Origin: Candidatus Colivicinus equi
Lineage (GTDB): Bacteria; Bacillota_I; Bacilli_A; Erysipelotrichales; Erysipelotrichaceae
DNA length: 42,906 nucleotides
Assembly: GCA_018064825.1 (NCBI GenBank)
Contig: JAGHUL010000006.1
Coordinates: 1-42,906, forward strand
Direction: 5' to 3'
Shown here: positions 8,558-25,716 of the stretch, piece after piece
Layout of the letters: each line of letters begins with the position of its first letter
Numbering within the stretch: the first letter of the stretch is position 1
Made by a program: the position numbers and the translations under genes
The notes under the pieces: generated by a model
Database searches by the model: none
What the model was told of the DNA's origin: nothing
The model's input: only the letters and a program-made list of their open reading frames with translations

Positions 8558-8569
8558 AAAGGGGAAAAA

Positions 8570-9901: not shown

Positions 9902-9908
9902 AGAATCT

Positions 9909-9936
9909 AGGAAGAGGCTATAGCCTCTTCCTGTTT
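9909..9936 (+). terminator. Perfect 24-base palindrome after murP (intra-operon terminator or processing hairpin)
   Basis: Bases 9909-9932 form a perfect inverted repeat with arms AGGAAGAGGCTA and TAGCCTCTTCCT, followed by GTTTT. It lies between murP and the next gene of the same operon, whose ribosome site starts two bases further on. The T run is short, so partial termination or 3'-end protection of the PTS transcript is more likely than a full stop. Confidence 0.6.
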
Positions 9937-9950
9937 TGAAGGAGAAAAGA

Positions 9951-11458: not shown

Positions 11459-11472
11459 TAAGAAGGAGAAAA

Positions 11473-12366
11473 ATGGTAAATATTAAAAATTTAGGAACAG
11501 AACAAAGAAATCAAAAAACACTTCATTTAGACGAACTATCAGCTCTCGAGATTGTTAGTATTATGAATGAAGAAGACTTAAATGTTGTTGCAGGTGTTAA
11601 ACAAGCTCTTCCACAAATTGCTGCGACAATACCGGCGATGGTAGAAACATTAAAGAACGGTGGAAGAATAGTTTACGTTGGTGCTGGTACTTCTGGCAGA
11701 ACAGGAATTATAGATGCTGTAGAATGTGGCCCAACCTTTGGTTGTACTAATGAATTCTTGGGCCTGATTGCTGGAGGGAATAACGCCGTATTTAAAGCTG
11801 TAGAAGGTGCCGAAGATAGAAAGGATTTGTGCGTTCAAGATTTGAAGGACAACAAATTTTCAAGTAAAGATATGCTTATAGCAGTTGCAGCAAGTGGTCG
11901 AACTCCTTATGCAATCGGTGGAGTGGAATATGCAAAATCACTAAACGCAAAAACAGCTTGTGTATGTTGCAATATCAACACTGAACTAGGGGCGGTTGTA
12001 GATTATCCAATTGAATGCTCTGCTGGACCAGAAATCTTAACAGGATCAACAAGATTAAAATCTGGGACTTGCCAAAAAATAATTATTAATATGCTTTCAA
12101 CAGCAACGATGGTTGGCATGGGAAAAGTATACAAAAACTTGATGGTTGATATGACGCCAACAAATGAAAAGCTTATTGAAAGATGCAGACACATTGTTAT
12201 GTCTGCAACTGATTGTAGTCGTGAGGTTGCCGACGCAACGTTGAAACAAACAACAAACAATAACGTTAAAGAAGCAATCGTCATGATATTACTTAACGTT
12301 GATAATAAAACCGCTAGAGAAAAACTTATGGCAAATGGCGGCTTTATTTCTAAAGCAATTAAATAG
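11473..12366 (+). CDS. murQ: N-acetylmuramic acid 6-phosphate etherase
   Basis: This 297-residue SIS-domain enzyme matches MurQ throughout: TEQRN near the N-terminus, YVGAGTSGRTGIIDAVECGPTFG (about 67-89), AVEGAEDRKD, AVAASGRTPYAIGG, the stretch from EILTGSTRLK through SGTCQKIIINML, and VDMTPTNEKL. It removes D-lactate from MurNAc 6-phosphate to give GlcNAc 6-phosphate, the step after MurP import. The ribosome site AAGGAG is ideal. It is the last gene of the operon, followed by a terminator. No deacetylase or deaminase is present here, so GlcNAc-6-P must be processed by genes elsewhere. Confidence 0.96.
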   Translation: MVNIKNLGTEQRNQKTLHLDELSALEIVSIMNEEDLNVVAGVKQALPQIAATIPAMVETLKNGGRIVYVGAGTSGRTGIIDAVECGPTFGCTNEFLGLIAGGNNAVFKAVEGAEDRKDLCVQDLKDNKFSSKDMLIAVAASGRTPYAIGGVEYAKSLNAKTACVCCNINTELGAVVDYPIECSAGPEILTGSTRLKSGTCQKIIINMLSTATMVGMGKVYKNLMVDMTPTNEKLIERCRHIVMSATDCSREVADATLKQTTNNNVKEAIVMILLNVDNKTAREKLMANGGFISKAIK

Positions 12367-12396
12367 AATCGAATCATCATTCATAGCAACAAGAAG

Positions 12397-12438
12397 CTGC
12401 AACAAAGCGTACTAGCAAGTAGAATGTTGCAGTTTTTT
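12397..12438 (+). terminator. Terminator of the MurNAc operon
   Basis: CTGCAACA (12397-12404) pairs with TGTTGCAG (12425-12432), followed by six T residues. The 20-base loop can pair further around CTAGCAAGTAG. It lies 31 bases after the murQ stop. Confidence 0.85.
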
Positions 12439-12471
12439 ATTGTGATAAGTGATTGGCATCGCGACATTTCT

Positions 12472-12921
12472 TTAGAAAAACATCTTTTTGTATAAGTCTT
12501 TTTGGCTCAATTTTGAACGAATGTTTTTCGCGTCTCTAATTCTTTCGATAGCGTTTAACGGATCTATGGAATGATATGGTTCATAAAGTTTAGCCAAATC
12601 TTCGCAATTAATATTTTTGTATATATTTCTACTTGTTTCTTCATATACATATGACCAGCATCTATATATGTAACCAATCCAATACATTACATCATAATGA
12701 ATTTTGTTTTTCCCAATATTTACTAGTTTTTTATTGTTGAGTTCAAATAATATATCGTCAATATTAAAAATAAAATTTCTGTCTATTATTTCACATGAAT
12801 ATGAATTCATAAAAGCTTTTGCAAAAGAAGAACTTGAGCCATTAAATGATGTAATCGATTGTGCAAATAATCTTCCTTGCTCTTTTGCAAGTTCTAACCC
12901 TTTACTATCAAATTGTCTCAT
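12472..12921 (-). CDS. Putative antitoxin partner of the DUF3990-like protein
   Basis: This 149-residue soluble protein overlaps the upstream gene by ATGA, so the two are translated together. I recognise the pattern (MYWIGYIYRCWSYVYEETS, LAKLYEPYHSIDPLNAIERI) as a small Firmicutes family commonly encoded next to ADP-ribosyltransferase-like toxins, but cannot name a Pfam domain. It has no obvious DNA-binding motif, which the partner protein carries instead. An antitoxin role is inferred from overlap, gene order and family memory. It could instead be another accessory protein of the same module. Confidence 0.6.
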   Translation of the reverse strand: MRQFDSKGLELAKEQGRLFAQSITSFNGSSSSFAKAFMNSYSCEIIDRNFIFNIDDILFELNNKKLVNIGKNKIHYDVMYWIGYIYRCWSYVYEETSRNIYKNINCEDLAKLYEPYHSIDPLNAIERIRDAKNIRSKLSQKDLYKKMFF

Positions 12922-13775
12922 TTAAGAAGTTCCTCGATGTACTTGCCTATACCTGCGAATTCTCTTTGGGCCATTTTTGTTTTCTGTGAACCAATTTCGT
13001 CGTTAGCTTTCTTTTCTATAAGATAATCTGCTTTTTCGCTTTCGCATAAATAACATTGTTCTAGAATGGATAAAGATTTTAATGCTTTATTCGTTTTAAA
13101 AACATATTGCTTGCCAAGGTTGGTAGCACCCAAAGCACTCAAACATTGTTTGTCAGTAATTATTCCATCAATAAAATTTTCAATGATTAGATACATATTA
13201 TTATCTGCGATAGGAGCGACGATAATGTCAGCACTATCGACTTTATTTATTATTGATAAAATCTTTTTACTGTTTGCGAAATTAGGAATCCTATTACGAT
13301 AAAACGCAATCGCCAGCATCCATTCTTCTGTAACGTCAAACTTAATAACATTTAGTTTAGGATTTACTTTGTACTCGCATACATAGACGTTACTATTTGG
13401 ATAGCCTGCAACAAATGTTGCTGATTGATATAAACTTTCTCCTAAATAAAAGCCCTTGCCAAAATCATTGTTTGTTTTTGAATATGATATATCAAGATTT
13501 GTAACTATTTTGTTTTTTGCTCCGTGAAATAGTATTTTTTTATTATCGTTTTCTAAATCCTTATAAATTTGTCCCTTGATCTTGTTAAAAAATATGTTGT
13601 TTTTATATGCATACTCATAAACAACTGACAACGAGTTGTTAGAGATGCTATCTTCGTTATGTTTCCAATAATTAAAAGTAGAACGAGGTTTATTTAATTG
13701 TTTAGATAGTTGAGTGTCAGATAAAGAAAGGTATTCTTTAATAAATTCTATGTCTTTTATTATGTTGTATTTCAT
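12918..13775 (-). CDS. HTH + DUF3990 ADP-ribosyltransferase-like protein (likely toxin)
   Basis: The protein has 285 residues when started at the ATG at 13775. A longer TTG frame reaches 13823 but reads through the operator repeats. The N-terminus has a helix-turn-helix-like segment (LSDTQLSKQLNKPRSTFNYW, 17-36). Residues about 80-230 match the DUF3990/mono-ADP-ribosyltransferase fold: ILFHGAKN (81-88) with the NAD-site His, then DFGKGFYLGES (104-114). The C-terminus is charged. With the co-translated downstream gene and the palindromic operator, this looks like a toxin-antitoxin unit in which the toxin gene comes first and carries its own DNA-binding domain. The target of modification is unknown. 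Confidence 0.7.
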   Translation of the reverse strand: MKYNIIKDIEFIKEYLSLSDTQLSKQLNKPRSTFNYWKHNEDSISNNSLSVVYEYAYKNNIFFNKIKGQIYKDLENDNKKILFHGAKNKIVTNLDISYSKTNNDFGKGFYLGESLYQSATFVAGYPNSNVYVCEYKVNPKLNVIKFDVTEEWMLAIAFYRNRIPNFANSKKILSIINKVDSADIIVAPIADNNMYLIIENFIDGIITDKQCLSALGATNLGKQYVFKTNKALKSLSILEQCYLCESEKADYLIEKKANDEIGSQKTKMAQREFAGIGKYIEELLK

Positions 13776-13783
13776 GACTATAG

Positions 13784-13825
13784 TGTACAATATTGTACAT
13801 AATATCTCAAGAGAATTGTACAATT
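13784..13825 (-). promoter_or_regulatory. Operator region of the toxin-antitoxin unit
   Basis: A 16-base perfect palindrome TGTACAATATTGTACA (13784-13799) lies 9 bases upstream of the toxin start. A second 12-base palindrome AATTGTACAATT (13814-13825) lies 15 bases further. Both are built from the core TTGTACAA. Their position over the presumed promoter suggests autorepression, most likely through the N-terminal HTH of the toxin or the TA complex. Confidence 0.65.
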
Positions 13826-13930
13826 AAATTACCATTAGTAAGTTTGACTGCAACCTCTTCTATACAAGTAATCATCATATACACTACCATTGAATCTTGG
13901 ATTAGTTATTCCCAAAATAGTATCTCAAGT

Positions 13931-13959
13931 TTGTTATGAAAGCGTTTTAATAATATAAT
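13931..13959 (+). promoter_or_regulatory. Promoter with cre site for the yhf-dha operon
   Basis: TTGTTA (-35, 13931-13936), a 17-base spacer and TATAAT (-10, 13954-13959) form a strong promoter. The spacer begins with TGAAAGCGTTTTAA (13937-13950), a near-perfect catabolite-responsive element (consensus TGWAANCGNTNNCA, one mismatch). CcpA bound here would block the promoter. Nothing else is recognisable in 13830-13930. Confidence 0.75.
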
Positions 13960-13983
13960 ATGGTTAACACTGTATTGATAAAT

Positions 13984-14367
13984 ATGAATAAAAATAGCGT
14001 AAAATGTCCGAGATGTGGCAAAGAATACGACCTTACTCTTAAGCAAATATATAAGGGTGTAAGTTGTCCACATTGCAACAAAAAAATGATGATGGATGAT
14101 AAAACGAAGAAGCGTCTTAAATATATACGCTATCTATTCGTTTTGGCTGTATCTATCGCAACAATGTATCCTCTAGTAAAGTTGATGAAGGATTTGGATG
14201 GTGTAACTATGCTTATCGTATTGGGTATGTTGGCAGTAGTCTTTGCTTTAGCACAGGTTGCAGATAAGGTGTGCGGATATTTGCTATATCACACGTTTGG
14301 TTTTACTTACGTGGAATATGTAGAAACGCCCGTAAAAAAAGATAATAGAACAGGAAAGAAGAAATAA
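13984..14367 (+). CDS. Zinc-ribbon protein with two membrane segments
   Basis: The protein has 127 residues from the ATG at 13984. The in-frame ATG at 13960 abuts the -10 box and would lie upstream of the transcription start. Four cysteines (Cys8, Cys11, Cys28, Cys31; CPRCGKEYD and CPHCNKK) form a zinc ribbon, followed by two hydrophobic helices (about 48-65 and 73-95) and a basic tail. It is the first gene of the yhf-like operon and overlaps the PRD gene by one base (TAATG). No E. coli yhf counterpart is known to me. A regulatory or transporter-accessory role is a guess. The start lacks a good Shine-Dalgarno. Confidence 0.65.
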   Translation: MNKNSVKCPRCGKEYDLTLKQIYKGVSCPHCNKKMMMDDKTKKRLKYIRYLFVLAVSIATMYPLVKLMKDLDGVTMLIVLGMLAVVFALAQVADKVCGYLLYHTFGFTYVEYVETPVKKDNRTGKKK

Positions 14368-14747
14368 TGGATTTTACAGAGAGATTAGAGCTTTATAAAG
14401 AAGGCGGAATGATTGATGATAAAGCAGTTGAAGATGTAAATGCAATCATCAAAATGTTTAAAGACGAATATGGCGTAGAGTTACAAGAAGAAAACGCAGA
14501 TACGTTTATTGCGCACATCTGTGCAGCATATTCTAGAAATGTAACTAAAGAAGAAGTTGAGGCTTTACCTGATGTTGTTAAGAACGAACTTATGAGGTTA
14601 GACACTTATGAGCAGAGTTTAGAAATTTTAAACAGGTTAGTAGAAGTTACGCAAAATCCTTTGAACCAAGTAGAAAAGGATTATGCTTTACTTCATATTA
14701 ATAATTTGATTGCAAGATTTAAGGGGGAAAATAATTGGAACAAATAA
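14367..14747 (+). CDS. yhfY: PRD domain protein (YhfY-like)
   Basis: This 126-residue protein is a single PTS regulation domain with a conserved His50 in TFIAHICAAYSR and a second in YALLHINNLIARF. It has no DNA- or RNA-binding domain, matching the small stand-alone PRD proteins such as E. coli YhfY. Such proteins can be phosphorylated by PTS components and may sense PTS flux for the operon. Here a PTS link is supplied by dhaM downstream. It is followed after 40 bases by the transporter gene. Confidence 0.75.
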   Translation: MDFTERLELYKEGGMIDDKAVEDVNAIIKMFKDEYGVELQEENADTFIAHICAAYSRNVTKEEVEALPDVVKNELMRLDTYEQSLEILNRLVEVTQNPLNQVEKDYALLHINNLIARFKGENNWNK

Positions 14748-14787
14748 ATCTGTAATCTAAAACGTAAATAAGGAGGAAAAATATATC

Positions 14788-16101
14788 ATGATTGAATTTA
14801 CGTTCCCTGCAATTGGCAGAGCTATCATCTTGATTGCTATTTGTGCTTGGGCAGCATTGCTTTCTCACAAATGTATCTCTAACTTCAATGATGGTGCTAG
14901 ACCTGTATTCCCAGAATTAATGGAAGGTCGTATGAGCCGTACAGAATTCGCAGTTGTAGTAACTGGTATGGGATTCGGTTGGGTTCTTGCAGGATTCTCA
15001 CAATGGTTAGGTTATGGCTTAATTGCTTGTCACTTGACATTAATTGCTACAGACTGTTTAGGTGCTTGGGCTCCTAATAAGTGGGTTGCTATTGGTTTAG
15101 GTGCTGCATGGGGTGCTATATGTTTCTGGGGTACTGAAGGTATCAACGCTGCATTTACTGCTTTACCATACAACTTCTTAAACGATTTAACTAACATCTC
15201 TACACCAGCTCTACCAGTATTCTGTATGTATCCAGCTGTTGCTGTTGCTGGTCAATACAATGCTAAGAGAGGTATTATCACTGGTGCTATCCAAGCTGCT
15301 GTATATATCTTATGTACAATTGTTGGTTCTATCCAATTCACAAACTTCTCAGTAGCTCTATATCCATACACATTCGCTATGTTAGCAGGTATGATCTGCT
15401 TAGTAGTATATGCTGTTTCTGGAAAGAAAGAAGAAGCTATTGAAACTTCTGCTGAAGAAGAAAACTTATTTGAAAAGAATGCTGAAAGAATTAAATCAAA
15501 TTGGTTATACTTATGTATCCAAGGTGCTTTAAACGCTCTAGGTATTGCAACATTATCACAAGCTTATCAACCAGCTACATTATCAGCTGCAGTTCTTGCA
15601 GGTAATATGTCAGTATTCAAGGTTGCTATGATTGGTGTAATTATTGCGTTCATTCCACTTATCGTTTCAACTTCATTAGCAACAGGTGTTTACCAAGCCG
15701 TAGGTCTAACTGCTGTTATGCTTGCAGGTTCATTCTTTACTGGAACAAATCTATGGTTCTTAGCACCAATCGTTGGTTTCGTTGTTGAATTCATTGAAAT
15801 CCAAATCTTAGGTTTATTAGGTAAACTATTAGCTAAATTCCCAGGCTTATCACAATCTGGTGATCATATCCGTGATGCAATGATTTCTTGTATCGGATTA
15901 GCATTATTAATCGGTTCATTCATGGCTGCAAACGCTACTTGGGGCGCTGTAGGTCTATGTATCGTTGGTGGTTTCTACACAATCAACGAAGTAACTGGTC
16001 AACGTCTTCCAAAGACAGCTGTTGGTCCAATTGCTGCTGTTACAGTAGGCATCTTATACAACTTAATGATCCTTCTTGGTTTCGTTACTTTAGCTGCATA
16101 A
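14788..16101 (+). CDS. yhfT: YhfT-family membrane transporter
   Basis: This 437-residue protein is almost entirely hydrophobic, with about ten to twelve membrane segments and one polar cytoplasmic loop (about 210-235, EEAIETSAEEENLFEKNAER). Size and pattern match YhfT, the predicted transporter of the E. coli yhf cluster. Neighbours YhfU, Php, YhfX, YhfS and YhfW confirm the assignment. The ribosome site AAGGAGGA is ideal, suggesting high expression. The substrate is unknown. The adjacent YhfU may be a partner, because the pair is always together in this gene set as I know it. Confidence 0.85.
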   Translation: MIEFTFPAIGRAIILIAICAWAALLSHKCISNFNDGARPVFPELMEGRMSRTEFAVVVTGMGFGWVLAGFSQWLGYGLIACHLTLIATDCLGAWAPNKWVAIGLGAAWGAICFWGTEGINAAFTALPYNFLNDLTNISTPALPVFCMYPAVAVAGQYNAKRGIITGAIQAAVYILCTIVGSIQFTNFSVALYPYTFAMLAGMICLVVYAVSGKKEEAIETSAEEENLFEKNAERIKSNWLYLCIQGALNALGIATLSQAYQPATLSAAVLAGNMSVFKVAMIGVIIAFIPLIVSTSLATGVYQAVGLTAVMLAGSFFTGTNLWFLAPIVGFVVEFIEIQILGLLGKLLAKFPGLSQSGDHIRDAMISCIGLALLIGSFMAANATWGAVGLCIVGGFYTINEVTGQRLPKTAVGPIAAVTVGILYNLMILLGFVTLAA

Positions 16102-16112
16102 GGAGTTAGTAT

Positions 16113-16493
16113 ATGTTAAAAATTGAATGTTGTGGCTTATCAGCTACTCAAACTAAACAAATTATTGAGAAAAATTTTGCTGGTCAAGCAGAAGCTCTTT
16201 CAGTGTCAGATATGATTGCTGCTAGAAGAGTTAAAAATGGTGAGACTGACTTCTATCTTGGAAGTTGTCAAACAGGTGGCGGAGGCAGCTTAGCTACTGC
16301 TATTATGGTTCTTGGATATTCAAATTGCTTAGTAGTATCTAGACAAGGTAAATGTCCAACACCAAAAGAAATACGTCATATGGTTTATGCTGGAAAACAT
16401 AAAGCATTTGGTTATGTTAAAGAACATACAGATGTTGTTGTACCTGCAGTTGTACAAGCTTTAGTTGATAGAGCAGAAGGAAAACCTGAATAG
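16113..16493 (+). CDS. yhfU: YhfU-like small glycine-rich protein (DUF2620)
   Basis: This 126-residue soluble protein is rich in glycine around LGSCQTGGGGSLATAIM (about 49-65) and has Cys residues in CCGLSATQ and GKCPTPKEI. It resembles E. coli YhfU in size and neighbourhood. It follows yhfT by 11 bases with its own AAGGAG site. Its fold recalls PTS EIIB-like or periplasmic-binding-like alpha/beta proteins, but no phosphorylation motif is clear. The function is unknown and it is probably a transporter partner. Confidence 0.75.
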   Translation: MLKIECCGLSATQTKQIIEKNFAGQAEALSVSDMIAARRVKNGETDFYLGSCQTGGGGSLATAIMVLGYSNCLVVSRQGKCPTPKEIRHMVYAGKHKAFGYVKEHTDVVVPAVVQALVDRAEGKPE

Positions 16494-16504
16494 ACATTTA
16501 ATTA

Positions 16505-16533
16505 AAGAACCGCCCTTAACTAGGGCGGTTCTT
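16505..16533 (+). other. GC-rich intra-operon hairpin between yhfU and php
   Basis: AAGAACCGCCCT (16505-16516) pairs perfectly with AGGGCGGTTCTT (16522-16533) around a 5-base loop. It is not followed by a T run, so it is probably an RNA stabiliser or processing site rather than a terminator. It separates the transport genes from the enzyme genes. Confidence 0.7.
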
Positions 16534-16549
16534 ACATTGGAGGTAAGTT

Positions 16550-17461
16550 ATGATTCGTAGTGTATATGGAGATATTAAAAAAGAAGATCTTGGCGTAACA
16601 ATGTGCCATGAACATTTTATTGTTGATTTAAGTATAGTAAGAAAAGATGACGAATCTAAGATTGAGACAATTGAAGAAGTAGTACCTGAAATAAAAAAGA
16701 TGATGGATTTAGGAGCTCAATCCGCAATAGAAGTTACAACAAACGATATGTATCGTGATGTTAAAAAATTGAAAGAAATTAGTGAAATAACTAAATTAAA
16801 TATAGTAGCAGCAACAGGATTCTATTTATCAGAATATCATCCTGATTGGTTAACAAATGCAACAGCAGAAGAAATTGCTGATGTAATGGTAAAAGATTTA
16901 ACTGAAGGTATCGATGGAACAGATATTAAAGCTGGTGTCATTGGTGAAATCGCAAGTAGTAAAGATTCTTTTGTTGGTCAAGAAAAGAAAGTATTAATTG
17001 CTAGTGCTATTGCACATACTAAAACTGGTGCAGCAGTAACTACGCACACAGGCAAATTTACTGCGATAGAAACTATTGAAACATTAATTAATAATGGTGT
17101 TACACCAGATAAGATTGTAATTGGTCATCAAGATTTGATTGACGATACTGATTATCACTTAAATATATTAAAGTATGGTGTAAATATTGGCTTTGATACA
17201 TGTGGCAAAGTATCATATCAATTAGATGAAACTAGAGCTAAAAATATAATTAAAATAATTGAAGCCGGATATGGTGATCACGTAATGCTTAGTAACGATA
17301 TTTCTAGAAGAACTTATTTCACAACATACGGCAAATTTGGTTACACTGCTGTTTTAGGAAGAGTTGTACCAATGTTGAAGGAATATGGATGTTCTCAAGA
17401 AAACATAAAGAAATTATTAGTAGATAATCCAGCAAGAATATTTAATAACGATAGGTGGTAA
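16550..17461 (+). CDS. php: Phosphotriesterase-family hydrolase (Php)
   Basis: This 303-residue amidohydrolase-superfamily TIM barrel has a full set of binuclear-metal ligands: His20 and His22 (MCHEHF), Glu133 (GVIGEIASS, bridging Glu in place of the carbamylated Lys of true phosphotriesterases), His166 (TTHTGK), His193 (IGHQD) and Asp250 (LSNDISRR). This is the Php/lactonase branch, whose known members hydrolyse lactones or phospho-lactones rather than organophosphates. An ideal GGAGG site precedes it. In the yhf context it probably opens a lactone, ester or amide in the pathway substrate. The actual substrate is not known. Confidence 0.88.
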   Translation: MIRSVYGDIKKEDLGVTMCHEHFIVDLSIVRKDDESKIETIEEVVPEIKKMMDLGAQSAIEVTTNDMYRDVKKLKEISEITKLNIVAATGFYLSEYHPDWLTNATAEEIADVMVKDLTEGIDGTDIKAGVIGEIASSKDSFVGQEKKVLIASAIAHTKTGAAVTTHTGKFTAIETIETLINNGVTPDKIVIGHQDLIDDTDYHLNILKYGVNIGFDTCGKVSYQLDETRAKNIIKIIEAGYGDHVMLSNDISRRTYFTTYGKFGYTAVLGRVVPMLKEYGCSQENIKKLLVDNPARIFNNDRW

Positions 17462-17464
17462 TTT

Positions 17465-18613
17465 ATGTTTGTTGAAAGACTATTAGAAAATAATCCAAAG
17501 TTAATAGAAGCTAGTTTATCGTTGTATAAACAAGGCTTGTTGATGCCAAATACTTATGTACTAGATTACGATGCTTTTTTGGATAACGGCAAGGCGATGT
17601 TAGAAGAAGCTAAGAAATATGACATTAAATTATTTTATATGTTGAAGCAAATCGGTAGAAATCCTTTAATAGCAAAAGGTCTTGATGAGCTGGGCTTTGC
17701 GGGATGTGTTGCTGTTGATTTTGATGAAGCTATGACAATGAAAAATAATGGATGTAAACTTGGTCATGTCGGCCATTTGGTTCAAATTCCACGTAATCTA
17801 ATAAAAGACACATTAGAAGCAAAACCAGAATATATAACAGTATATTCGATGCAGAAAATCTTGGATATTAATGAAGAGGCTAAGAAGTCAGGTATCGTTC
17901 AAAAATTGTGCATAAGAATAACAGATGAAGATTCTGATTTATATTCTGGCCAAATAGGAGGCTTTTCTAGTAGTCATTTAAAGTGTCTTGTTAAAGAAAT
18001 TGAAAAGTTGGATAACGTTAAAGTTGGTGGCTTAACAGTATTCCCTGCCTTGCTATATGATGGACAAGACAAAAAAATACAACCAACAAAAAACATTAAC
18101 GCAATGAATAGAGCCAAGGCTGTTATGGAAGAATTAGGTTACAAAGATTTAATGATAAATATGCCTAGTTGCACTTGCGTAAATTCTATACCACTTATAA
18201 AACAAATAGGTGGAACTCATGGTGAACCAGGACACGGTTTATCTGGTACCACTCCACTTCATAAGGATACAAAGCAAATCGAAAAAGTAGCTTATCTATA
18301 TCTATCAGAAGTGTCTCATAATTTTGATAAACACGCTTATATTTATGGTGGTGGTCATTATCGTAGATCACATATGGAAAACGCATTGGTTGGTTATGAT
18401 TTAAAGAAGGCAAAAGTATGCGCTCCAAGCACAGAATCAATTGATTATCACTATGAATTAGACCAAAATTATGATGTGAATGAACCGGTAATAATGTGTT
18501 ATCGTACACAAGTCTTTACAACTAGATCACACGTTGCAGTTGTTAAAGGAATAAGTAGAGATAACGTTGAATTACTAGGTATCTATAATGGCTTAGGCCA
18601 AAGAGAAAAATAA
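17465..18613 (+). CDS. yhfX: PLP-dependent alanine racemase-fold enzyme (YhfX)
   Basis: This 382-residue fold type III PLP protein has the PLP lysine as Lys61 in LFYMLKQIGRNP at the end of the first barrel strand, followed by a TIM barrel (GHVGHLVQIP, LCIRITDEDSD, GGLTVFPALL, GEPGHGLSGTTPLH) and a C-terminal beta domain. This is the arrangement of YhfX. The fold covers racemases, D-amino acid dehydratases or aldolases and decarboxylases, so the reaction is uncertain. It starts 3 bases after php, and the amidase-like gene begins one base after its stop codon. Confidence 0.82.
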   Translation: MFVERLLENNPKLIEASLSLYKQGLLMPNTYVLDYDAFLDNGKAMLEEAKKYDIKLFYMLKQIGRNPLIAKGLDELGFAGCVAVDFDEAMTMKNNGCKLGHVGHLVQIPRNLIKDTLEAKPEYITVYSMQKILDINEEAKKSGIVQKLCIRITDEDSDLYSGQIGGFSSSHLKCLVKEIEKLDNVKVGGLTVFPALLYDGQDKKIQPTKNINAMNRAKAVMEELGYKDLMINMPSCTCVNSIPLIKQIGGTHGEPGHGLSGTTPLHKDTKQIEKVAYLYLSEVSHNFDKHAYIYGGGHYRRSHMENALVGYDLKKAKVCAPSTESIDYHYELDQNYDVNEPVIMCYRTQVFTTRSHVAVVKGISRDNVELLGIYNGLGQREK

Positions 18614-18614
18614 G

Positions 18615-19583
18615 ATGAAAGGCAATTACGAAAAGCAACATAAGACAGCACTATTAAATCCGTATAAATCTGTTATTGAAGTATTCGATGCGAACCCCGA
18701 TAACTATTTAGTAGGAATTAAAAATGTGTCATCAATCCCTAATACTTTAATGCATAAGTTAGAATCTTACGGTTTTTCATTACACACAATTGATAAAAAA
18801 TCACAACTTGCAGGAAGAGCTGTTGATACAGAATTAATTAATCCTATTAGTGGTAATTATATGTCTGGATCATCAAGCGGAACAGCAATCAATGTTTTTG
18901 CGGGAATCAATGATTTAGGCATAGGAAATGATGGTGGTGGATCAGTATTAGCTCCTGCAATTTGCGTTAATATTTTAGGATTCATTTCTAAAAAAATAGA
19001 AGAAGACCGTGTTCAAAACATTAAAAAGAATACTGATGGAATTGTTGCTGGTAACTCAATTGGTTTTATGGCAAGAGATAGACAAATACTATTAAAAGCA
19101 ATTGAAGTATCAACAGGTATTAAACAAGGTAATGAAATAGGCTTAGTATATTCAGATAAAAAATATGATGGTATAGATTCTAAAGTTATTGAAGTGATGG
19201 AATGCCACACTGAAAGAAAAACATTAACCAATTATTTAAAAAACACATTAAGCGAGTGTGATGTGTTCATAGTTAGTGAAGGTCCTATTGATATCAATGG
19301 ATTTGGTGACTCTTTATTTGGACATTTTGACGAAAGAACTAAAGCCATTCAGGAAGCAGCCAATAAAGGATATGTGAGAGTAGCAAACATTGCCGAAGCT
19401 ACTGCTCTTGCAATTCCTCAAAAAGGTTTAGGTATGACAACATTGTTAATGTGCGAATCGAAAAAAGAAAAAATAGAAAAATTATTAAAGTGTGCTAGTT
19501 TAATTGAAGACGTTCATGATGAATTAATCGAAAGATACTTCTTAAATTTAGATAATTATTTTATGGAGGGATATCAAAAATGA
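18615..19583 (+). CDS. Compact amidase-signature family protein in the yhf operon
   Basis: This 322-residue protein has the amidase signature: Lys36 (LVGIKNVSS), a Ser-rich cis-Ser region 84-90 (SGSSSGT) and Ser110 in GIGNDGGGSVLAPA, which lines up with the GTDTGGS nucleophile. The Ser-cisSer-Lys triad is therefore retained. At 322 residues it is much shorter than usual amidases (about 450-500), and the missing part is the C-terminal substrate-shaping region. The E. coli yhf cluster has no such gene to my knowledge. It overlaps yhfS by 4 bases (ATGA). It probably hydrolyses an amide in the same pathway. Confidence 0.75.
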   Translation: MKGNYEKQHKTALLNPYKSVIEVFDANPDNYLVGIKNVSSIPNTLMHKLESYGFSLHTIDKKSQLAGRAVDTELINPISGNYMSGSSSGTAINVFAGINDLGIGNDGGGSVLAPAICVNILGFISKKIEEDRVQNIKKNTDGIVAGNSIGFMARDRQILLKAIEVSTGIKQGNEIGLVYSDKKYDGIDSKVIEVMECHTERKTLTNYLKNTLSECDVFIVSEGPIDINGFGDSLFGHFDERTKAIQEAANKGYVRVANIAEATALAIPQKGLGMTTLLMCESKKEKIEKLLKCASLIEDVHDELIERYFLNLDNYFMEGYQK

Positions 19584-20674
19584 AAGTATACCCATTAAAA
19601 AGCATTACGATAGAACAAGCTCAAGAGAAACAATTCAAAATGGTTGAATGCTTGTTACATCACTTTACAGGTAGCGAATTATTATCAAGAGGCGACTTAG
19701 GTGTTAACAAACTAGAAAACAAACCTATCTATACAGCAAAAGTTGAAAAAGTCATCGCCGAATTTTTTGATGCTGAAGATGCCATACTCGTTAGAGGTAG
19801 TGGCACAGGAGCAATTAGATATGGGCTTGCAGGCATGATAAAAGCTGGTTCAAAATTATTGATTCACGATGCTCCCGCATATTCAACAACACAAACGAGC
19901 ATTGGAATGTTCGGTTTAAAAACTGTAGTAGCAAATTTTAATGATATTAACGAATTAAAAAAAGTCATTGCTGAAAATCCTGATATCGAAGGCGCACTAA
20001 TTCAATACTCAAGACAAAAGCCAGATGATAGTTATGAAATCAGTGAAGTAATCAAAACAATAAAAGAATCAATTGATGTTCCTATTCTAGTTGATGACAA
20101 TTACGTAGTTATGAAAGTCGATAAAGTTGGATATGAATTGGGGGCTGATCTGACGTGCTTCTCATGTTTTAAACTTCAAGGTCCTGAAGGCATTGGTTGT
20201 ATAGTTGGTAAAAAAGATATTATCGCCAAGATAAAGAAGATGCATTATTCTGGAGGTTGCCAAGTCCAAGGACATGAAGCTCTAGATGTTATTAGAGGAT
20301 TGGTATATTCACCAGTGATGCTTGCGATTGGAGCAAGAGAAGCTGAAAAAGTTCTTGAGTTATCTAAGAACATAAAAGGAATAAAAGATGCATTCATTGC
20401 TAACGCACAATCAAAAGTTATTATGTTCGAACTTGAAGAACCTATCGCAAAGCAAGTTATTATCGAAGCTGGAAAACGAGGAGCATTACCTAACCCAGTA
20501 GGTTCCGAATCAAAATATGAAATTGCTCCTTTGTTCTATAAAGCATCTGGAACATTCTTAAAAATTAATCCAGTATACATAGACACAATGATTAGAGTAA
20601 ATCCTAATCGTGCTAGCGCAGAAACCGTTTTGAAAATATTAGATGAAAGCATTAAAGCTGTCAAAGGTGAATAG
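19580..20674 (+). CDS. yhfS: PLP-dependent aminotransferase-like enzyme (YhfS)
   Basis: This 364-residue fold type I PLP enzyme has the PLP-phosphate loop RGSGTGAIRYGL (72-83), the Asp pair in PILVDDNYVV (about 172-173) and the Schiff-base lysine Lys198 in CFSCFKLQGPEGIG. Length and context match E. coli YhfS. Related proteins include Cys/Met-metabolism lyases and selenocysteine-synthase-like enzymes, so lyase or aldol chemistry is as likely as transamination. Overlaps at both ends (amidase ATGA, yhfW immediately after the stop) show tight translational coupling. Confidence 0.82.
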   Translation: MKVYPLKSITIEQAQEKQFKMVECLLHHFTGSELLSRGDLGVNKLENKPIYTAKVEKVIAEFFDAEDAILVRGSGTGAIRYGLAGMIKAGSKLLIHDAPAYSTTQTSIGMFGLKTVVANFNDINELKKVIAENPDIEGALIQYSRQKPDDSYEISEVIKTIKESIDVPILVDDNYVVMKVDKVGYELGADLTCFSCFKLQGPEGIGCIVGKKDIIAKIKKMHYSGGCQVQGHEALDVIRGLVYSPVMLAIGAREAEKVLELSKNIKGIKDAFIANAQSKVIMFELEEPIAKQVIIEAGKRGALPNPVGSESKYEIAPLFYKASGTFLKINPVYIDTMIRVNPNRASAETVLKILDESIKAVKGE

Positions 20675-21892
20675 ATGAAGAGAAGGTTTATTGTAGTTGT
20701 ATTAGATGGTTTTGGCATGGGCGCAATGAACGACGCCTCTATTGCTAGACCAGGCGACGAAACAGCTGGAACTCTAAGAAGCATTTTAGAAGACTATCCT
20801 GATTTGAAATTGCCAAACCTAGAGAAGCTGGGTTTAATGAACGCTTATGGTAAAGAATCAAATTTGATGAAATATAGTCCTGAGGCTAATTATGGCAAAT
20901 CAGAATTAATGCATTATGGTGCTGATACATTTATGGGGCATCAGGAAATTATGGGAACACTTCCTAAAAAGCCTGATGTTCAGCCGTTTCAAACAAAAGT
21001 AGATGTTGTTTATAATCATTTAAAAGAAAATGGTTACAAAGTAGAATATGTTGAAAAGCAAGGTTTAAGATATGTTGTTGCTGAAGATTATGTAACCGTA
21101 GCTGATAATTTGGAAGCAGATTTAGGTATGTGCTACAACGTCACTGCTCCATTAGATTATTGTCCTTTTGAAAAAGAACTAGAAATTGCGGAATGTGTAA
21201 GAGAAGTTGTTACTGTAGGCAGAGTAATCGTATTTGGTGGAACAGGAAACAATATGCAGGATTTGTGGAATGCCGAAGAAATAAGAGAAGGCAAATTTAT
21301 AGGTATTGCTTCAGCTAAATCTAAATCTTATGAACAAGGATATGAATGTCGTCACTTAGGTTATGGTGTAAACAAAAATGTCCAAGCGCCAACAATCCTT
21401 ACAAGAAATAATATCCCTTGCATCTTAATTGGAAAGGTTGCTGATATCGTTGCTAATGATAATGGCGAATCTATTTCTTGTGTTCCTACATCAGAATGTA
21501 TGGAATTAACATATGAAGCTATGCAAAAAATTGATGAAGGATTCATATGCACAAATGTTCAAGAGACAGATCTTGCAGGTCACTCACAATCGACAAAAGA
21601 ATATAAGCACATTCTAGAAATTGCTGATAAAGGATTTGAAAAAATCCTTGCTGAATTAAGAGATGATGATGTCTTAGTAGTAATGGCAGATCATGGAAAT
21701 GATCCAAAGATTGGTTCAAGTCGCCACACAAGAGAATGCGTTCCACTACTTATTAAGCACAAAGACATAAAAGGTGTTAACATCGGTTTAAGAAAGAGTC
21801 TATCTGATGTTGGTGCGTCTGTTTGTGATTATTTTGACGTCGAAGCACCTGACAATGGAACATCATTCTTAGATTTAATAAAGTATATTTAA
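20675..21892 (+). CDS. yhfW: Phosphopentomutase-like metalloenzyme (YhfW)
   Basis: This 405-residue alkaline-phosphatase-superfamily enzyme is close to phosphopentomutase: Asp11 in VVLDGFG, Thr85 in GADTFMGHQEIMGT (aligns with the phosphorylated Thr of phosphopentomutase), MADHGNDP and SSRHTRECVPLL for the two metal ions, and GTSFLDLI at the end. All catalytic positions I can check are kept, so it should be active on a phosphorylated compound. In the yhf set its substrate is unknown and need not be a pentose. AAAGGTGA precedes the start. Confidence 0.85.
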   Translation: MKRRFIVVVLDGFGMGAMNDASIARPGDETAGTLRSILEDYPDLKLPNLEKLGLMNAYGKESNLMKYSPEANYGKSELMHYGADTFMGHQEIMGTLPKKPDVQPFQTKVDVVYNHLKENGYKVEYVEKQGLRYVVAEDYVTVADNLEADLGMCYNVTAPLDYCPFEKELEIAECVREVVTVGRVIVFGGTGNNMQDLWNAEEIREGKFIGIASAKSKSYEQGYECRHLGYGVNKNVQAPTILTRNNIPCILIGKVADIVANDNGESISCVPTSECMELTYEAMQKIDEGFICTNVQETDLAGHSQSTKEYKHILEIADKGFEKILAELRDDDVLVVMADHGNDPKIGSSRHTRECVPLLIKHKDIKGVNIGLRKSLSDVGASVCDYFDVEAPDNGTSFLDLIKYI

Positions 21893-21942
21893 AATGCTTG
21901 TTAGTACAAAAAACCAATTAGTTTATGGTGAAAGGAGAAAAG

Positions 21943-22935
21943 ATGAAAAAGTTTATTAATGATGCAAACAATGTTGAAGATGAAATGATATCAGGAATGA
22001 TTAAAGCTTACCCAGACAAATTAGATAAGCTTGATTGTGGCGATGTTGTTGTTAGAAAAACAAAGAAAGTAGATAAAGTCGCTTTGGTGTCTGGTGGTGG
22101 CTCAGGTCACGAACCTGCTCATGCTGGATATGTTGGCGAAGGAATGTTGGATGCTGCAGTATGTGGTAAAGTATTTACTTCTCCTACACCAGACAAAGTA
22201 TATGAAGCAATTAAAGCTGTTAATGCAAATAAAGGTGTTTTATTAATTATCAAGAATTACACAGGCGATATTATGAATTTCGAAATGGCTATGGAAATGG
22301 CCGAGATGGATGGCATCGAAGTAGAAAAGGTTGTTGTAGCAGATGATGTTGCTGTTCAAAATAGTTTATATACTGTTGGTAGACGTGGTGTTGCTGGAAC
22401 TGTTTTTGTTCATAAGATTGCAGGTGCTTTAGCAGAACAAGGCACAAGCTTACAAGAAGTAAAAGCAATAGCAGAAAAAGTAATAGCAAATGTTAGAACA
22501 ATGGGTGTTGCTTTATCTCCATGTACAGTACCAGCAGCTGGTGTGCCAGGATTTGTAATTGAAGATAATCAAATGGAAATGGGAATTGGAATCCATGGTG
22601 AACCAGGTGTTTATAAGCAAGAAATCAAAACAGCAAACGAAATTGCTGATGAACTAGTGACAAAGATTTTGGAAGATTACGATTTTACAAATGGCGAAGT
22701 TGCAGTAATGGTAAATGGCTCAGGCGCAACTCCATATATGGAATTATGTATCGTAAATAATCGCGTTGCTGATGTGCTAAAAGAAAAAGGTGTTAACGTA
22801 TATAGAACATATATCGGAAATTACATGACATCACTAGAGATGGCTGGCTTATCATTAACATTATTAAAGTTAGATGAACAAACAAAACAATTATTAGATC
22901 AAAAAGCAGACACAATTGGTCTTAAGGAATTTTAA
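21943..22935 (+). CDS. dhaK: Dihydroxyacetone kinase subunit DhaK
   Basis: The protein has 330 residues from the ATG at 21943, which has AAAGGAG six bases before. An in-frame ATG at 21925 would include that site in the coding region. DhaK features are clear: GGGSGHEPAHAGYVG, the TSPTPDKVYEAIKA region, KNYTGDIMNFEMA, and the substrate-binding histidine in GIGIHGEPGVY. It binds dihydroxyacetone covalently and receives phosphate from the ADP held by DhaL. It follows yhfW after 50 bases without a terminator, so it is probably on the yhf transcript. Confidence 0.95.
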   Translation: MKKFINDANNVEDEMISGMIKAYPDKLDKLDCGDVVVRKTKKVDKVALVSGGGSGHEPAHAGYVGEGMLDAAVCGKVFTSPTPDKVYEAIKAVNANKGVLLIIKNYTGDIMNFEMAMEMAEMDGIEVEKVVVADDVAVQNSLYTVGRRGVAGTVFVHKIAGALAEQGTSLQEVKAIAEKVIANVRTMGVALSPCTVPAAGVPGFVIEDNQMEMGIGIHGEPGVYKQEIKTANEIADELVTKILEDYDFTNGEVAVMVNGSGATPYMELCIVNNRVADVLKEKGVNVYRTYIGNYMTSLEMAGLSLTLLKLDEQTKQLLDQKADTIGLKEF

Positions 22936-22936
22936 A

Positions 22937-23548
22937 GTGATAAACAATAAAAAAGTAATTGAGATTCTTCATAATATCTCACTAAAAATCAATGAACAAA
23001 AAGATTATTTAACTATGTTAGATAATGAAATTGGTGATGGCGATCATGGCATTAATTTGGCTAGAGGTTTTGTTGAGGTTGATAAAAAATTAGAATCTAT
23101 ATCAGATAAAGATATCGGTACAATCCTAAAAACTACCGGAATGACTTTAGTTTCAACAGTTGGCGGAGCTTCTGGTCCGTTATATGGAACGGCTTTTATG
23201 TATGCTGGAAAACAAGTTGGTGATAAATCAGAAATCGATATTAATGATTTCAAAGATATTTTAAAAGTTGCTATAGATGGTGTTAAGGTTCGTGGCAAAG
23301 CAGAACAAGGTGAAAAGACAATGCTTGATGCTATGATTCCTGCTTATAATTCCATGAGTGAAGAACAAGATGCTAAAGTAGCTTTATTAAAAGGTGTTGA
23401 TGCTGCTAAAAAGGGTGTTGAATACACAAAGACAATTATTGCGACTAAAGGTAGAGCATCTTACTTAGGTGAAAGAAGTTTAGGGCATCAAGATCCTGGT
23501 GCAACTTCATTCACATTTATGTTAGAAGTTATTGCGGAGTCATTATAA
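22937..23548 (+). CDS. dhaL: Dihydroxyacetone kinase subunit DhaL
   Basis: The protein has 203 residues from a GTG at 22937, one base after the dhaK stop, with TTAAGGAA about 9 bases upstream. Magnesium-ADP ligands are visible in DNEIGDGDHGINLARGF (about 34-50). GGASGPLYGTAFMYAG and SLGHQDPGATSF near the end are typical DhaL. In PTS-dependent systems the bound ADP is a cofactor rephosphorylated by DhaM. It overlaps dhaM by one base. Confidence 0.94.
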   Translation: MINNKKVIEILHNISLKINEQKDYLTMLDNEIGDGDHGINLARGFVEVDKKLESISDKDIGTILKTTGMTLVSTVGGASGPLYGTAFMYAGKQVGDKSEIDINDFKDILKVAIDGVKVRGKAEQGEKTMLDAMIPAYNSMSEEQDAKVALLKGVDAAKKGVEYTKTIIATKGRASYLGERSLGHQDPGATSFTFMLEVIAESL

Positions 23549-23904
23549 TGGTTGGAATTGTAATTGTATCTCATTCTAAATTATTAGCTGAGGGCGTTAT
23601 TGATTTAGTTAGGATGACATCTAAAAAAGTCAAAATTGCTGCAGCAGGTGGATTAGAAAATGGCGAATATGGAACTTCATATGATTTGATTAATAAAGCT
23701 ATTGATGAAGTATACAGTGAAGACGGCGCCATAATATTTGTGGACTTAGGTTCATCAATAATGACATCTGAAATGGTAATAGAAGATAGAAACAATCCAA
23801 AGATTGTATTATCTAAAGCCGATTTAGTTAATGGCGCGTTTGCTGCAAGCATATATGCAGAAAACAATGCCACTTTAGAAGAAATAATAAGTAAGGTAGA
23901 GTAG
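23548..23904 (+). CDS. dhaM: PTS-dependent dihydroxyacetone kinase phosphotransferase subunit DhaM (EIIA-Man type)
   Basis: This 118-residue single EIIA(Man)-fold domain has the phosphorylated His9 in IVIVSHSKLLAEG, AGGLENGEYGTS and IFVDLGSSIMTSEM. Unlike E. coli DhaM it has no fused HPr and EI-like domains, so it takes phosphate from the cell's general HPr. It is the last gene of the long yhf-dha operon, with a terminator 28 bases later. It links the whole operon to PTS flux, as do the PRD protein and the cre site at its start. Confidence 0.94.
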   Translation: MVGIVIVSHSKLLAEGVIDLVRMTSKKVKIAAAGGLENGEYGTSYDLINKAIDEVYSEDGAIIFVDLGSSIMTSEMVIEDRNNPKIVLSKADLVNGAFAASIYAENNATLEEIISKVE

Positions 23905-23931
23905 AGAAAAACATTATTGGTAAAAATGATG

Positions 23932-23958
23932 GAACGGGGTATGATAATCCCGTTTTTT
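23932..23958 (+). terminator. Terminator of the yhf-dha operon
   Basis: AACGGG (23933-23938) pairs with CCCGTT (23949-23954), followed by a T run. It lies between dhaM and the ABC exporter genes. Confidence 0.85.
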
Positions 23959-23982
23959 GATATATAGTATTAAAGGAACATT

Positions 23983-25716
23983 ATGTTTAAGTTATTATTT
24001 AAATACACTAAAGATGGATGGTGGGCCGCAGTTCTTGGCCCAATCTTTACAATTGCCGAAGTATTCTTTGATGCTTATATCCCACTAGTAATGGCCGATA
24101 TTATTGATGTCGGTATTTATGAATTGGGTGGCGATATTGAATACATCACAAAGAAGGGTGTATACATGGTTGCGATGGCTTTGCTTGCAGCCTTGTGTGG
24201 TGCTCTAAGTGGCTTGTTGTCATCTATCTCTTCAACAAAATTTGTTAAGAATATTAGAAATGCAATGTATCGTAAAATTCAAACATTTGATTTTGCGAAT
24301 ATCGAGAAATTCCCAGTCTCAACTATCGTAATGCGTTTAACTACAGATATGCGTATGATGAGAATGGCATATGTGCAAATAGTTCGAATGGCAATGCGTG
24401 CACCATTTAATTTGGCGCTTAGTGCATATAACGCATATAAACTAAATTCGACTATCTCTTTTGTATTTGCAATTATTCTTCCTATTTTAGGATTGATTTT
24501 ATACTTGATTACAATGACTTCACATCCTCGTTTTAGAAAGATGATGTTGAGGTTTGATGATCTTGATGAAAAGCTTGATGAAAACATTAATGGCATAAGA
24601 GTTGTGAAAACTTTCGTTAGAGAAGAATACGAAAATGAGGATTTTAATAAATCATCAGAAGCTGTATTAAAAGCACAAAGACATGCTGAAAATATTGTTA
24701 TCTTGAATAGGCCTGCATTTGAACTTGCTATGTATATCTGTATGATTGCTGTGGCTTGGATTGGTGGAAAGGCTATCATTGGTGGATCAATGCCTACTGG
24801 TGACTTTATGGCTTATCTATCTTATGTTAAAGCTATCTTATTCTCATTGTTGATGCTTTCAAATGTTGTTATGCAAGTTGTAATGGCAGAAGCTTCAATT
24901 GATAGAGCAAATGAAGTATTAGATGAAGAGCCAAGCATCAGCGATATAAATGCAAATTCAGAATTAGAAGTTGATGAGGGATCAATTGAATTTAGAAATG
25001 TTTCTTTTAAATATTCTAAAGATGCAGAAAATGATGTTCTTGAAAATATAAATTTAAAAATAAATCCAGGAGAAGTTGTTGGTATCTTAGGACCTACTGG
25101 TGCTGGAAAGACTTCTTTAGTTCAACTAATTCCAAGATTATACGATATCAGTGAAGGAGAATTGTTGATTGGTGGTCACGATATCAAGGAATATAAACTT
25201 GATAAATTAAGAGAAGCTATTGCAATGGTTCTTCAGAAGAACACACTTTTCTCTGGCAGTGTTAGAGAAAACATGAAATGGGGCAATCCTAACGCTAGTG
25301 ATGAAGAAATAATTGAAGCATGTAAAGATGCTCAAGCCCATGATTTTATCGTTGCTCATAGAGACGGCTACGATCGTGAATTGGGTCAAGGCGGAACAAA
25401 TGTTTCTGGTGGTCAAAAACAAAGGCTATGCATTGCGCGCGCTTTATTAAGAAAACCTAAAATAATTATTCTTGATGATTCAACTAGCGCCGTTGATACC
25501 GATACTGATCATCGTATCCAATTAGCTTTTAAAGAAAAATTAAGTGGCATGACTACGATTATCATTGCACAAAGAGTTGCGTCTGTTAAAGAAGCAAATC
25601 GCATCATCATTATGGAAGATGGTAAGATTTCCGATATTGGTACTCATGATGAATTAATGGAAAGAAATGTTGTATATCATGACTTGTATACAACGCAAAT
25701 GGAAGGAGCCGAATAA
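23983..25716 (+). CDS. Heterodimeric ABC exporter subunit 1 (degenerate Walker B site)
   Basis: This 577-residue half-transporter has six membrane segments (about 15-310) followed by a nucleotide-binding domain: Walker A GPTGAGKTSL, Q-loop VLQKNTLF, signature VSGGQKQR and Walker B IIILDDSTSAVD. The catalytic Glu after Walker B is Asp, while the signature is canonical. This is the pattern of the non-catalytic partner in exporters such as TM287/288 or BmrCD. The partner follows 2 bases downstream. The likely role is export of drugs, peptides or lipids. Confidence 0.92.
   Translation: MFKLLFKYTKDGWWAAVLGPIFTIAEVFFDAYIPLVMADIIDVGIYELGGDIEYITKKGVYMVAMALLAALCGALSGLLSSISSTKFVKNIRNAMYRKIQTFDFANIEKFPVSTIVMRLTTDMRMMRMAYVQIVRMAMRAPFNLALSAYNAYKLNSTISFVFAIILPILGLILYLITMTSHPRFRKMMLRFDDLDEKLDENINGIRVVKTFVREEYENEDFNKSSEAVLKAQRHAENIVILNRPAFELAMYICMIAVAWIGGKAIIGGSMPTGDFMAYLSYVKAILFSLLMLSNVVMQVVMAEASIDRANEVLDEEPSISDINANSELEVDEGSIEFRNVSFKYSKDAENDVLENINLKINPGEVVGILGPTGAGKTSLVQLIPRLYDISEGELLIGGHDIKEYKLDKLREAIAMVLQKNTLFSGSVRENMKWGNPNASDEEIIEACKDAQAHDFIVAHRDGYDRELGQGGTNVSGGQKQRLCIARALLRKPKIIILDDSTSAVDTDTDHRIQLAFKEKLSGMTTIIIAQRVASVKEANRIIIMEDGKISDIGTHDELMERNVVYHDLYTTQMEGAE

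What the first reader, a model, noticed from the sequence alone, without database searches (positions are those of the whole stretch)
13931..23958. A yhf-type operon joined to PTS dihydroxyacetone kinase: a probable uncharacterised catabolic pathway
Seven genes match the E. coli yhf set (YhfY, T, U, Php, X, S, W), which has no established substrate. Here they are in one direction with minimal gaps, have gained a zinc-ribbon membrane protein and an amidase-signature enzyme, and run without a terminator into dhaKLM. Linkage to DhaKLM suggests that the pathway releases dihydroxyacetone or a similar ketone, which would be the first clue to the end product. A possible order is import (YhfT/U), amide cleavage, lactone or ester opening (Php), PLP chemistry (YhfX, YhfS), a phosphomutase-like step (YhfW) and phosphorylation (DhaKLM).
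Basis: partly seen in the sequence, partly recalled or inferred. Interest (0 to 1): 0.85.

Follow-up and report, generated by a model that had tools for sequence, protein, structure and literature searches.

The report
Bacillota yhf operon with added dhaKLM
A set of genes of unknown purpose, known from E. coli, is intact in this gut-type bacterium together with an extra amidase gene; the dihydroxyacetone-kinase genes behind it look like a local addition, and comparison with relatives points, moderately, to an amino-sugar breakdown product instead.

The parts
13931..13959 (+). sigma-70-like promoter match TTGTTA-17-TATAAT in front of the operon
   Evidence: 46 such matches found in the stretch, mean 47.4 in shuffles, so weak on its own
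13960..14367 (+). small protein with an N-terminal CxxC zinc ribbon and hydrophobic segments (by inspection)
   Evidence: zinc-ribbon models, all below cut-off; matched in 19 of 45 Bacillota loci, 0 of 47 Pseudomonadota
14367..14747 (+). YhfY, single PRD domain; His50 in 70 of 70 homologues
   Evidence: (PF00874 22.5 bits, just under its cut-off of 23)
14788..16101 (+). YhfT, polytopic membrane protein, probable importer (inferred)
   Evidence: PF10797 345.8 bits; model pLDDT 88; no clear fold match
16113..16493 (+). YhfU (DUF2620), RpiB/LacAB-like fold; Cys52 in 85 of 85 homologues
16505..16533 (+). 12-bp hairpin between the transport and enzyme genes; stems recur in relatives with different letters
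16550..17461 (+). Php, phosphotriesterase-family metallohydrolase; H20 H22 E133 H166 H193 D250 kept
17465..18613 (+). YhfX, alanine-racemase-like PLP enzyme; K61 in 81 of 81
   Evidence: (PDB 4kbx)
18615..19583 (+). short amidase-signature enzyme; K36, S86, S88, S110 in 32 of 32
19580..20674 (+). YhfS, fold-type-I PLP enzyme; K198 in 72 of 72
   Evidence: (PDB 4j8l)
20675..21892 (+). YhfW, phosphopentomutase-like; metal-ligand positions kept, Thr/Ser85 kept, middle (cap) part not aligned to phosphopentomutase
21943..22935 (+). dhaK, joined to yhf in this genome only among the loci examined
22925..23548 (+). dhaL
23548..23904 (+). dhaM, EIIA-man domain only
23933..23958 (+). terminator-like hairpin (AACGGG, loop 10, CCCGTT, T-run) behind dhaM
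   Evidence: sequence and fold

Best explanation
This is the Bacillota form of the orphan yhf catabolic operon. Shown here: the genes form one conserved unit whose catalytic residues are kept, the amidase is a regular Bacillota member, and dhaKLM is joined to it in this genome only among those examined. Inferred: YhfT imports a nitrogen-containing sugar derivative under PTS control (PRD protein YhfY). The amidase and Php open amide and ester or lactone bonds. YhfX and YhfS do PLP chemistry on the amino-acid-like part. YhfU (RpiB-like) and YhfW (phosphopentomutase-like) rearrange the sugar phosphate. The sugar part leaves as glucosamine 6-phosphate or a close analogue, drained by NagB, which some lineages place directly behind yhfW. 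In some Pseudomonadota a phosphatase with a signal-peptide-like start may first remove a phosphate outside the membrane. DhaKLM here is a co-transcribed passenger, or serves a side product in this strain only.
Against: nagB is joined to 4 of 45 Bacillota loci only. The count of recurrent families in flanking runs (4 in two or more lineages, 1 in three) is not clearly above a control drawn from other genes of the same loci (mean 2.79, maximum 6; a three-lineage family in 225 of 500 draws); in that pool the only three-lineage family looks like ABC ATPases, so the weight rests on nagB being a low-copy gene. No control was run for the phosphatases, which follow yhfT in 4 of 17 loci without yhfS. 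nagB is common anyway (17 of 19 yhf genomes searched). L103 and the Hungatella loci lack php and amidase, and 14 of 41 long Pseudomonadota loci lack yhfS, so no single fixed pathway fits all. YhfU lacks RpiB's His-Asn pair in the profile alignment. YhfT gave no clear fold. PsuG and PfkB behind yhfW in L058 point to pentose, not hexosamine.
Confidence: 0.4

Rival explanations
1. The pathway releases dihydroxyacetone or a similar ketone that DhaKLM phosphorylates.
For: dhaKLM follows yhfW after 50 bp with no terminator match, and a terminator-like hairpin follows dhaM; it is the only Dak1 match of the genome.
Against: dhaK near yhf in 1 of 45 and 0 of 47 loci; absent from 18 of 21 other yhfT-positive genomes; the closest relative seen, G018 (YhfT 88% identical, 91% complete), has no dhaK and another gene behind yhfW. 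Caveat: several genus assemblies are only 71-80% complete.
Confidence: 0.07
2. Pentose or nucleoside route: YhfW acts as a true phosphopentomutase (ribose 1-phosphate to 5-phosphate) and YhfU as a ribose-5-phosphate-type isomerase, so a phosphorylated, amide- or amino-acid-bearing nucleoside is dephosphorylated outside, imported and broken down to pentose phosphate.
For: YhfW keeps phosphopentomutase metal-ligand positions and Thr/Ser85 and passes NF009049 (560.9 against 254); YhfU RpiB fold; PsuG and PfkB behind yhfW in L058; zwf-like and gnd-like genes (by inspection) and a PF10282 gene (tested for L118) in front of L118/L119; acid phosphatases. By inspection a nucleoside-hydrolase-like gene lies about 5.4 kb from the L046 cluster and a uridine-phosphorylase-like gene about 7.9 kb from L045, neither in the flanking runs.
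Against: YhfW is below the deoB cut-off (142 against 341 bits) and its cap does not align; YhfU lacks RpiB's His-Asn pair; nagB, not a nucleoside enzyme, is what recurs in the runs.
Confidence: 0.25
3. YhfU is not an enzyme but a soluble partner of YhfT (sensor or phosphoryl acceptor), like the Gly_rich_SFCGS protein next to the DUF4310/DUF4311-like membrane pair.
Against: YhfU against SFCGS gave probability 21 (with 4 SFCGS sequences) and YhfT against DUF4310/4311-like alignments under 1; the RpiB rows stand well above EIIB.
Confidence: 0.3

Closest known systems
E. coli K-12 yhfS, yhfT, yhfU, php, yhfW, yhfX, yhfY, yhfZ (b3376-b3383), annotated as putative or uncharacterised
   Same: Seven orthologous genes in one run, catalytic residues kept
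   Different: Different gene order; amidase and zinc-ribbon protein added; yhfZ regulator absent from the window and from its genome assembly; dhaKLM behind
PTS-dependent dihydroxyacetone kinase DhaKLM
   Same: DhaK and DhaM over their NCBIfam cut-offs, DhaL over Pfam's
   Different: DhaM is the EIIA domain only (118 aa); linked to yhf only here
Ribose-5-phosphate isomerase B / LacAB (for YhfU)
   Different: His-Asn pair not kept in the alignment; no Pfam PF02502 match up to E 0.01
Phosphopentomutase DeoB (for YhfW)
   Same: Metal-ligand positions and Thr/Ser85 kept
   Different: Cap region not aligned; below the deoB cut-off
Gly_rich_SFCGS/DUF4310-4312-like gene clusters with DgaE-like PLP enzyme and amidohydrolase
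   Same: Small PRD-like gene, glycine-rich RpiB-like protein, membrane genes, metallohydrolase and PLP enzyme in one run (by inspection; only PF14272 was tested)
   Different: Membrane proteins not demonstrably homologous; different PLP enzyme and an aldolase-like gene

Membership tests
yhf operon (E. coli type) | YhfT (PF10797) and YhfU (PF10941) together | tested here: met
   345.8 and 104.2 bits, cut-offs 26.1 and 25
yhf operon (E. coli type) | Php, YhfX, YhfS, YhfW orthologues with catalytic residues | tested here: met
yhf operon (E. coli type) | YhfZ regulator in the cluster (34 of 45 Bacillota, 41 of 47 Pseudomonadota loci) | tested here: not met
   none in the window; PF14503 has no match in the own genome (assembly 96% complete)
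DhaKLM PTS-dependent dihydroxyacetone kinase | DhaK, DhaL, DhaM families over curated cut-offs | tested here: met
   an enzyme I is present in the genome
dhaKLM as part of the yhf pathway | adjacency or co-occurrence in relatives | tested here: not met
RpiB/LacAB sugar-phosphate isomerase (YhfU) | RpiB fold | tested here: met
RpiB/LacAB sugar-phosphate isomerase (YhfU) | active-site Cys loop | tested here: met
   Cys52 85 of 85, aligned to RpiB Cys65; its role as base is recalled
RpiB/LacAB sugar-phosphate isomerase (YhfU) | His98-Asn99 pair | tested here: not met
   aligned to Met-Val, in a low-identity alignment
Phosphopentomutase (YhfW) | metal ligands and nucleophile | tested here: met
   D11, D84, D299, H303, D339, H340, H351 in 71 of 71; Thr/Ser85 in 71 of 71 (ligand and nucleophile roles recalled)
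Phosphopentomutase (YhfW) | PRK12383 model NF009049 | tested here: met
   560.9 against 254 bits
Phosphopentomutase (YhfW) | deoB equivalog cut-off | tested here: not met
   TIGR01696 142.2 against 341.2
Phosphotriesterase family (Php) | PF02126 and binuclear metal ligands | tested here: met
Php equivalog (NF007373, PRK09875) | equivalog cut-off | tested here: not met
   226.3 against 486 bits
Phospho-furanose lactonase (NF045706) | equivalog cut-off | tested here: not met
   140.1 against 630 bits
Amidase signature | Lys, cis-Ser, Ser triad | tested here: met
   K36, S86/S88, S110 in 32 of 32; triad assignment recalled; only 48 residues match PF01425
PRD domain (YhfY) | PF00874 cut-off | tested here: not met
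   22.5 against 23 bits; E 0.00014, full-length match, His50 in 70 of 70
PTS permease (YhfT) | EIIC fold | tested here: inconclusive

The most novel reading that the evidence does not exclude
yhf is an unrecognised pathway for an extracellular phosphate-ester or amide conjugate of an amino sugar. A secreted phosphatase (in some species) and YhfT bring it in; an amidase, a phosphotriesterase-fold hydrolase, two PLP enzymes, an RpiB-fold isomerase (YhfU, a new isomerase subfamily) and a phosphopentomutase-fold hexosamine phosphomutase (YhfW) deliver glucosamine 6-phosphate to NagB. A conserved mRNA hairpin sets the ratio of transporter to enzymes.
Probability: 0.2. Interest if true: 0.7.

Novelty: new variant of a known kind. 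Interest (0 to 1): 0.42.

Why it matters
The yhf genes are present in E. coli K-12, and proteins named Php, YhfS and YhfX have solved structures, yet I saw no function for them in the searches made. The comparison turns a misleading clue (dihydroxyacetone) into testable ones: YhfU as an RpiB-like isomerase, YhfW with NagB on hexosamine phosphates, and a phosphorylated extracellular precursor. All three can be tested with purified E. coli K-12 proteins.

Tried and rejected
DHA as end product: set aside. murQ 1.6 kb upstream of the operon as evidence for a muramate substrate: set aside as window-specific, since no other yhf locus searched matched it and two reversed genes lie between. YhfT as a split DUF4310/4311 relative: probability under 1 (4 sequences on the other side). 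YhfT as a PTS EIIC: no match listed, inconclusive. Statistical excess of recurrent neighbours as such: not found. The first control (mean 2.62 families in two lineages; a three-lineage family in 118 of 300 draws) held antisense ORFs over yhf genes; leaving these out did not change the result (mean 2.79; 225 of 500). Rows dropped: L042 and L045 and L104 (no yhfT ORF kept); runs were cut at four genes a side and 250 bp gaps or three genes and 400 bp. Rfam over 12300-24100 at gathering scores: nothing. Foreign base composition of dhaKLM: GC is even over the run. No solved relative of the amidase at E 0.001. Literature: searches for yhf gene names, DUF2620 and PDB codes, and for dhaKLM with yhf, showed no functional study of the E. 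coli-type genes (listings and starts of abstracts only, at most 30 papers listed per search; no paper was opened). One search was a lactonase search (listing only).
Full report
OBSERVATION. The window is contig C62 of a 1.69-Mb, 130-contig assembly (96% complete, 5.4% contaminated). From 13960 to 23904 lie twelve genes on one strand: zinc-ribbon protein, yhfY, yhfT, yhfU, php, yhfX, amidase, yhfS, yhfW, dhaK, dhaL, dhaM. Seven match E. coli K-12 yhf proteins at 22-52% identity. Gaps are -11 to 56 bp. The yhfW-dhaK gap is 50 bp with GAAAGGAG before the ATG at 21943 and no terminator-like match. Behind dhaM lies a stem of AACGGG/CCCGTT with a T-run, ending at 23958, then two ABC-exporter-like genes (by inspection). 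GC content is even across it.

DHAKLM IS LOCAL. In the genus, yhfT occurs in 11 of 36 genomes including this one. Of the 10 others (71-99% complete), 8 have no dhaK and 2 have one on another contig, without yhf genes beside it in the stretches read. Of 15 yhfT-negative genomes in the same call (14 of 25 in the genus and one of the family), 4 have dhaK, so no association shows. A scan of one genome per species gave 79 named yhfT loci with up to 10 kb on each side (the best 80 of 92 confirmed stretches were kept). With E. coli K-12, 11 loci from a phylum-wide sample (13 of 392 genomes) and the window, I examined 92 loci: 45 Bacillota (one of them, L127, has yhfT alone) and 47 Pseudomonadota. dhaK lies near yhf in 1 of 45 (the window) and 0 of 47 (among loci of 14 kb or more, 1 of 32 and 0 of 41). 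Some loci end at a contig edge before yhfW: yhfW is seen in 37 of 45 and 37 of 47. Of 11 further yhfT-positive genomes at 95% completeness or better, 1 has dhaK, far away. So 18 of 21 other genomes tested have yhfT but no dhaK, as far as the assemblies go.

WHAT IS CONSERVED. The amidase is in 33 of 45 Bacillota loci and 0 of 47 Pseudomonadota; the zinc-ribbon protein in 19 of 45, all in the window's own YhfT lineage; yhfZ in 34 of 45, but not in the window, and PF14503 has no match in its assembly. In four of the 10 genus mates (L021, L023, L024, L027) a second php and a second yhfS follow yhfW. Catalytic residues are kept: Php ligands in at least 87 of 88, YhfX K61 81 of 81, YhfS K198 72 of 72, YhfW ligand positions 71 of 71 with Thr or Ser at 85, amidase K36, S86, S88, S110 32 of 32, YhfY His50 70 of 70. 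These were computed on ORFs kept by length and score, not on all loci.

CLUES TO THE PRODUCT. Among 122 genes in co-directional runs next to Bacillota yhf clusters (43 of 45 loci, nine YhfT lineages at 60% identity), the only family in three lineages is nagB: directly behind yhfW in Geosporobacter (overlapping it) and in two class mates (10 and 17 bp), and behind HPr-EI in Alicyclobacillus shizuokensis. All four pass TIGR00502. The two class mates carry a second nagB. HPr, a HAD phosphatase and a PF10282 lactonase occur in two lineages; dhaK in one. A control drawn from other genes of the same loci shows that recurrence as such is not clearly in excess (mean 2.79, maximum 6, against 4 families in two lineages; a three-lineage family in 225 of 500 draws, the only one in the pool looking like ABC ATPases). 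So nagB counts because it is a low-copy gene (one to three matches in the genomes that have it), and the inference stays moderate. MupG-like genes (L061, L103) and a ChbG-like gene (L120; below cut-off) fit the amino-sugar theme; PsuG-PfkB (L058) does not.

In Pseudomonadota (46 of 47 loci, seven YhfT lineages at 80% identity, 98 flanking genes) the only families shared by two lineages are phosphatases with signal-peptide-like starts: PAP2 type behind yhfT in L076, L089, L093 and acid phosphatase B type in L084, L089 (Pfam was run on the L076, L084_11 and L089_11 proteins, the other two PAP2 members are assigned by clustering). All four loci lack yhfS in what is seen (L093 starts inside the cluster); they are 4 of 17 loci without yhfS. 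L084 adds a KdgM-type porin. This suggests that the precursor outside the membrane is a phosphate ester. No control was run for this.

HAIRPIN. Between yhfU and php, at 16505-16533, is a 12-bp hairpin. In Bacillota, gaps of 20 bp or more between a transport gene (yhfT/U) and the next enzyme gene have a helix of 8 bp or more in 23 of 30 cases (median z -3.2; z of -3 or below in 17), against 16 of 58 other gaps (median z -0.15; 5). Stem letters differ between loci while a stem stays. In Enterobacteriaceae hairpins appear instead between yhfY and yhfX, again before the first enzyme gene, mostly with weaker z. Related sequences are not independent, and the Hungatella loci (L113, L115) have none. 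The likely role, inferred, is partial termination or message stabilisation that favours transporter over enzymes.

VERDICT. Real, conserved, apparently uncharacterised operon; dhaKLM linkage local in what was examined; better clues found. No function was seen in the searches listed (listings only).

Noticed in passing
window 16505-16533 and the yhfT/U-to-enzyme gaps of relatives: Hairpin kept in structure but not in letters at the boundary of transport and enzyme genes (23 of 30 Bacillota gaps of 20 bp or more).
   Followed up: partly
L076 11341-12213, L089 11326-13029, L093 2803-3648, L084 11297-12926: PAP2 and acid-phosphatase-B genes with signal-peptide-like starts, and a KdgM porin in L084, behind yhfT in loci without yhfS.
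   Followed up: partly
L183 6362-7719 (G002 contig 44): Remnant of a yhf operon: a php gene, then a short ORF that begins like yhfX and ends like yhfW, as after a deletion; this genome gave no yhfT match.
   Followed up: no
L053/L020 (closest relative, G018): A second yhfU-yhfT pair, nearer to the E. coli type, sits between yhfZ and the main operon.
   Followed up: no
L068 and L111 (Enterovibrio sp. ZSDZ35): One genome shows two partial sets on two contigs: U-T-X-W on one and Z-Y-php-U-T on the other.
   Followed up: no
L149-L152, L165-L168: Gly_rich_SFCGS proteins (PF14272) look RpiB-like (probability 69) and lie in runs with a small PRD-like gene, DUF4310-4312-like genes, an amidohydrolase and a DgaE-like PLP enzyme (by inspection).
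   Followed up: partly
window 7290-12366: A separate PTS and murQ cluster: EIIA, BglG-type antiterminator, EIIBC, N-acetylmuramic acid 6-phosphate etherase.
   Followed up: partly
window 12472-13823, - strand: Reversed DUF3990 gene and a small partner in front of the operon, where many relatives have yhfZ; possibly an inserted module that displaced the regulator.
   Followed up: no
L046 2783-3700 and L045 2-565: Nucleoside-hydrolase-like and uridine-phosphorylase-like genes 5-8 kb from yhf clusters (by inspection).
   Followed up: no
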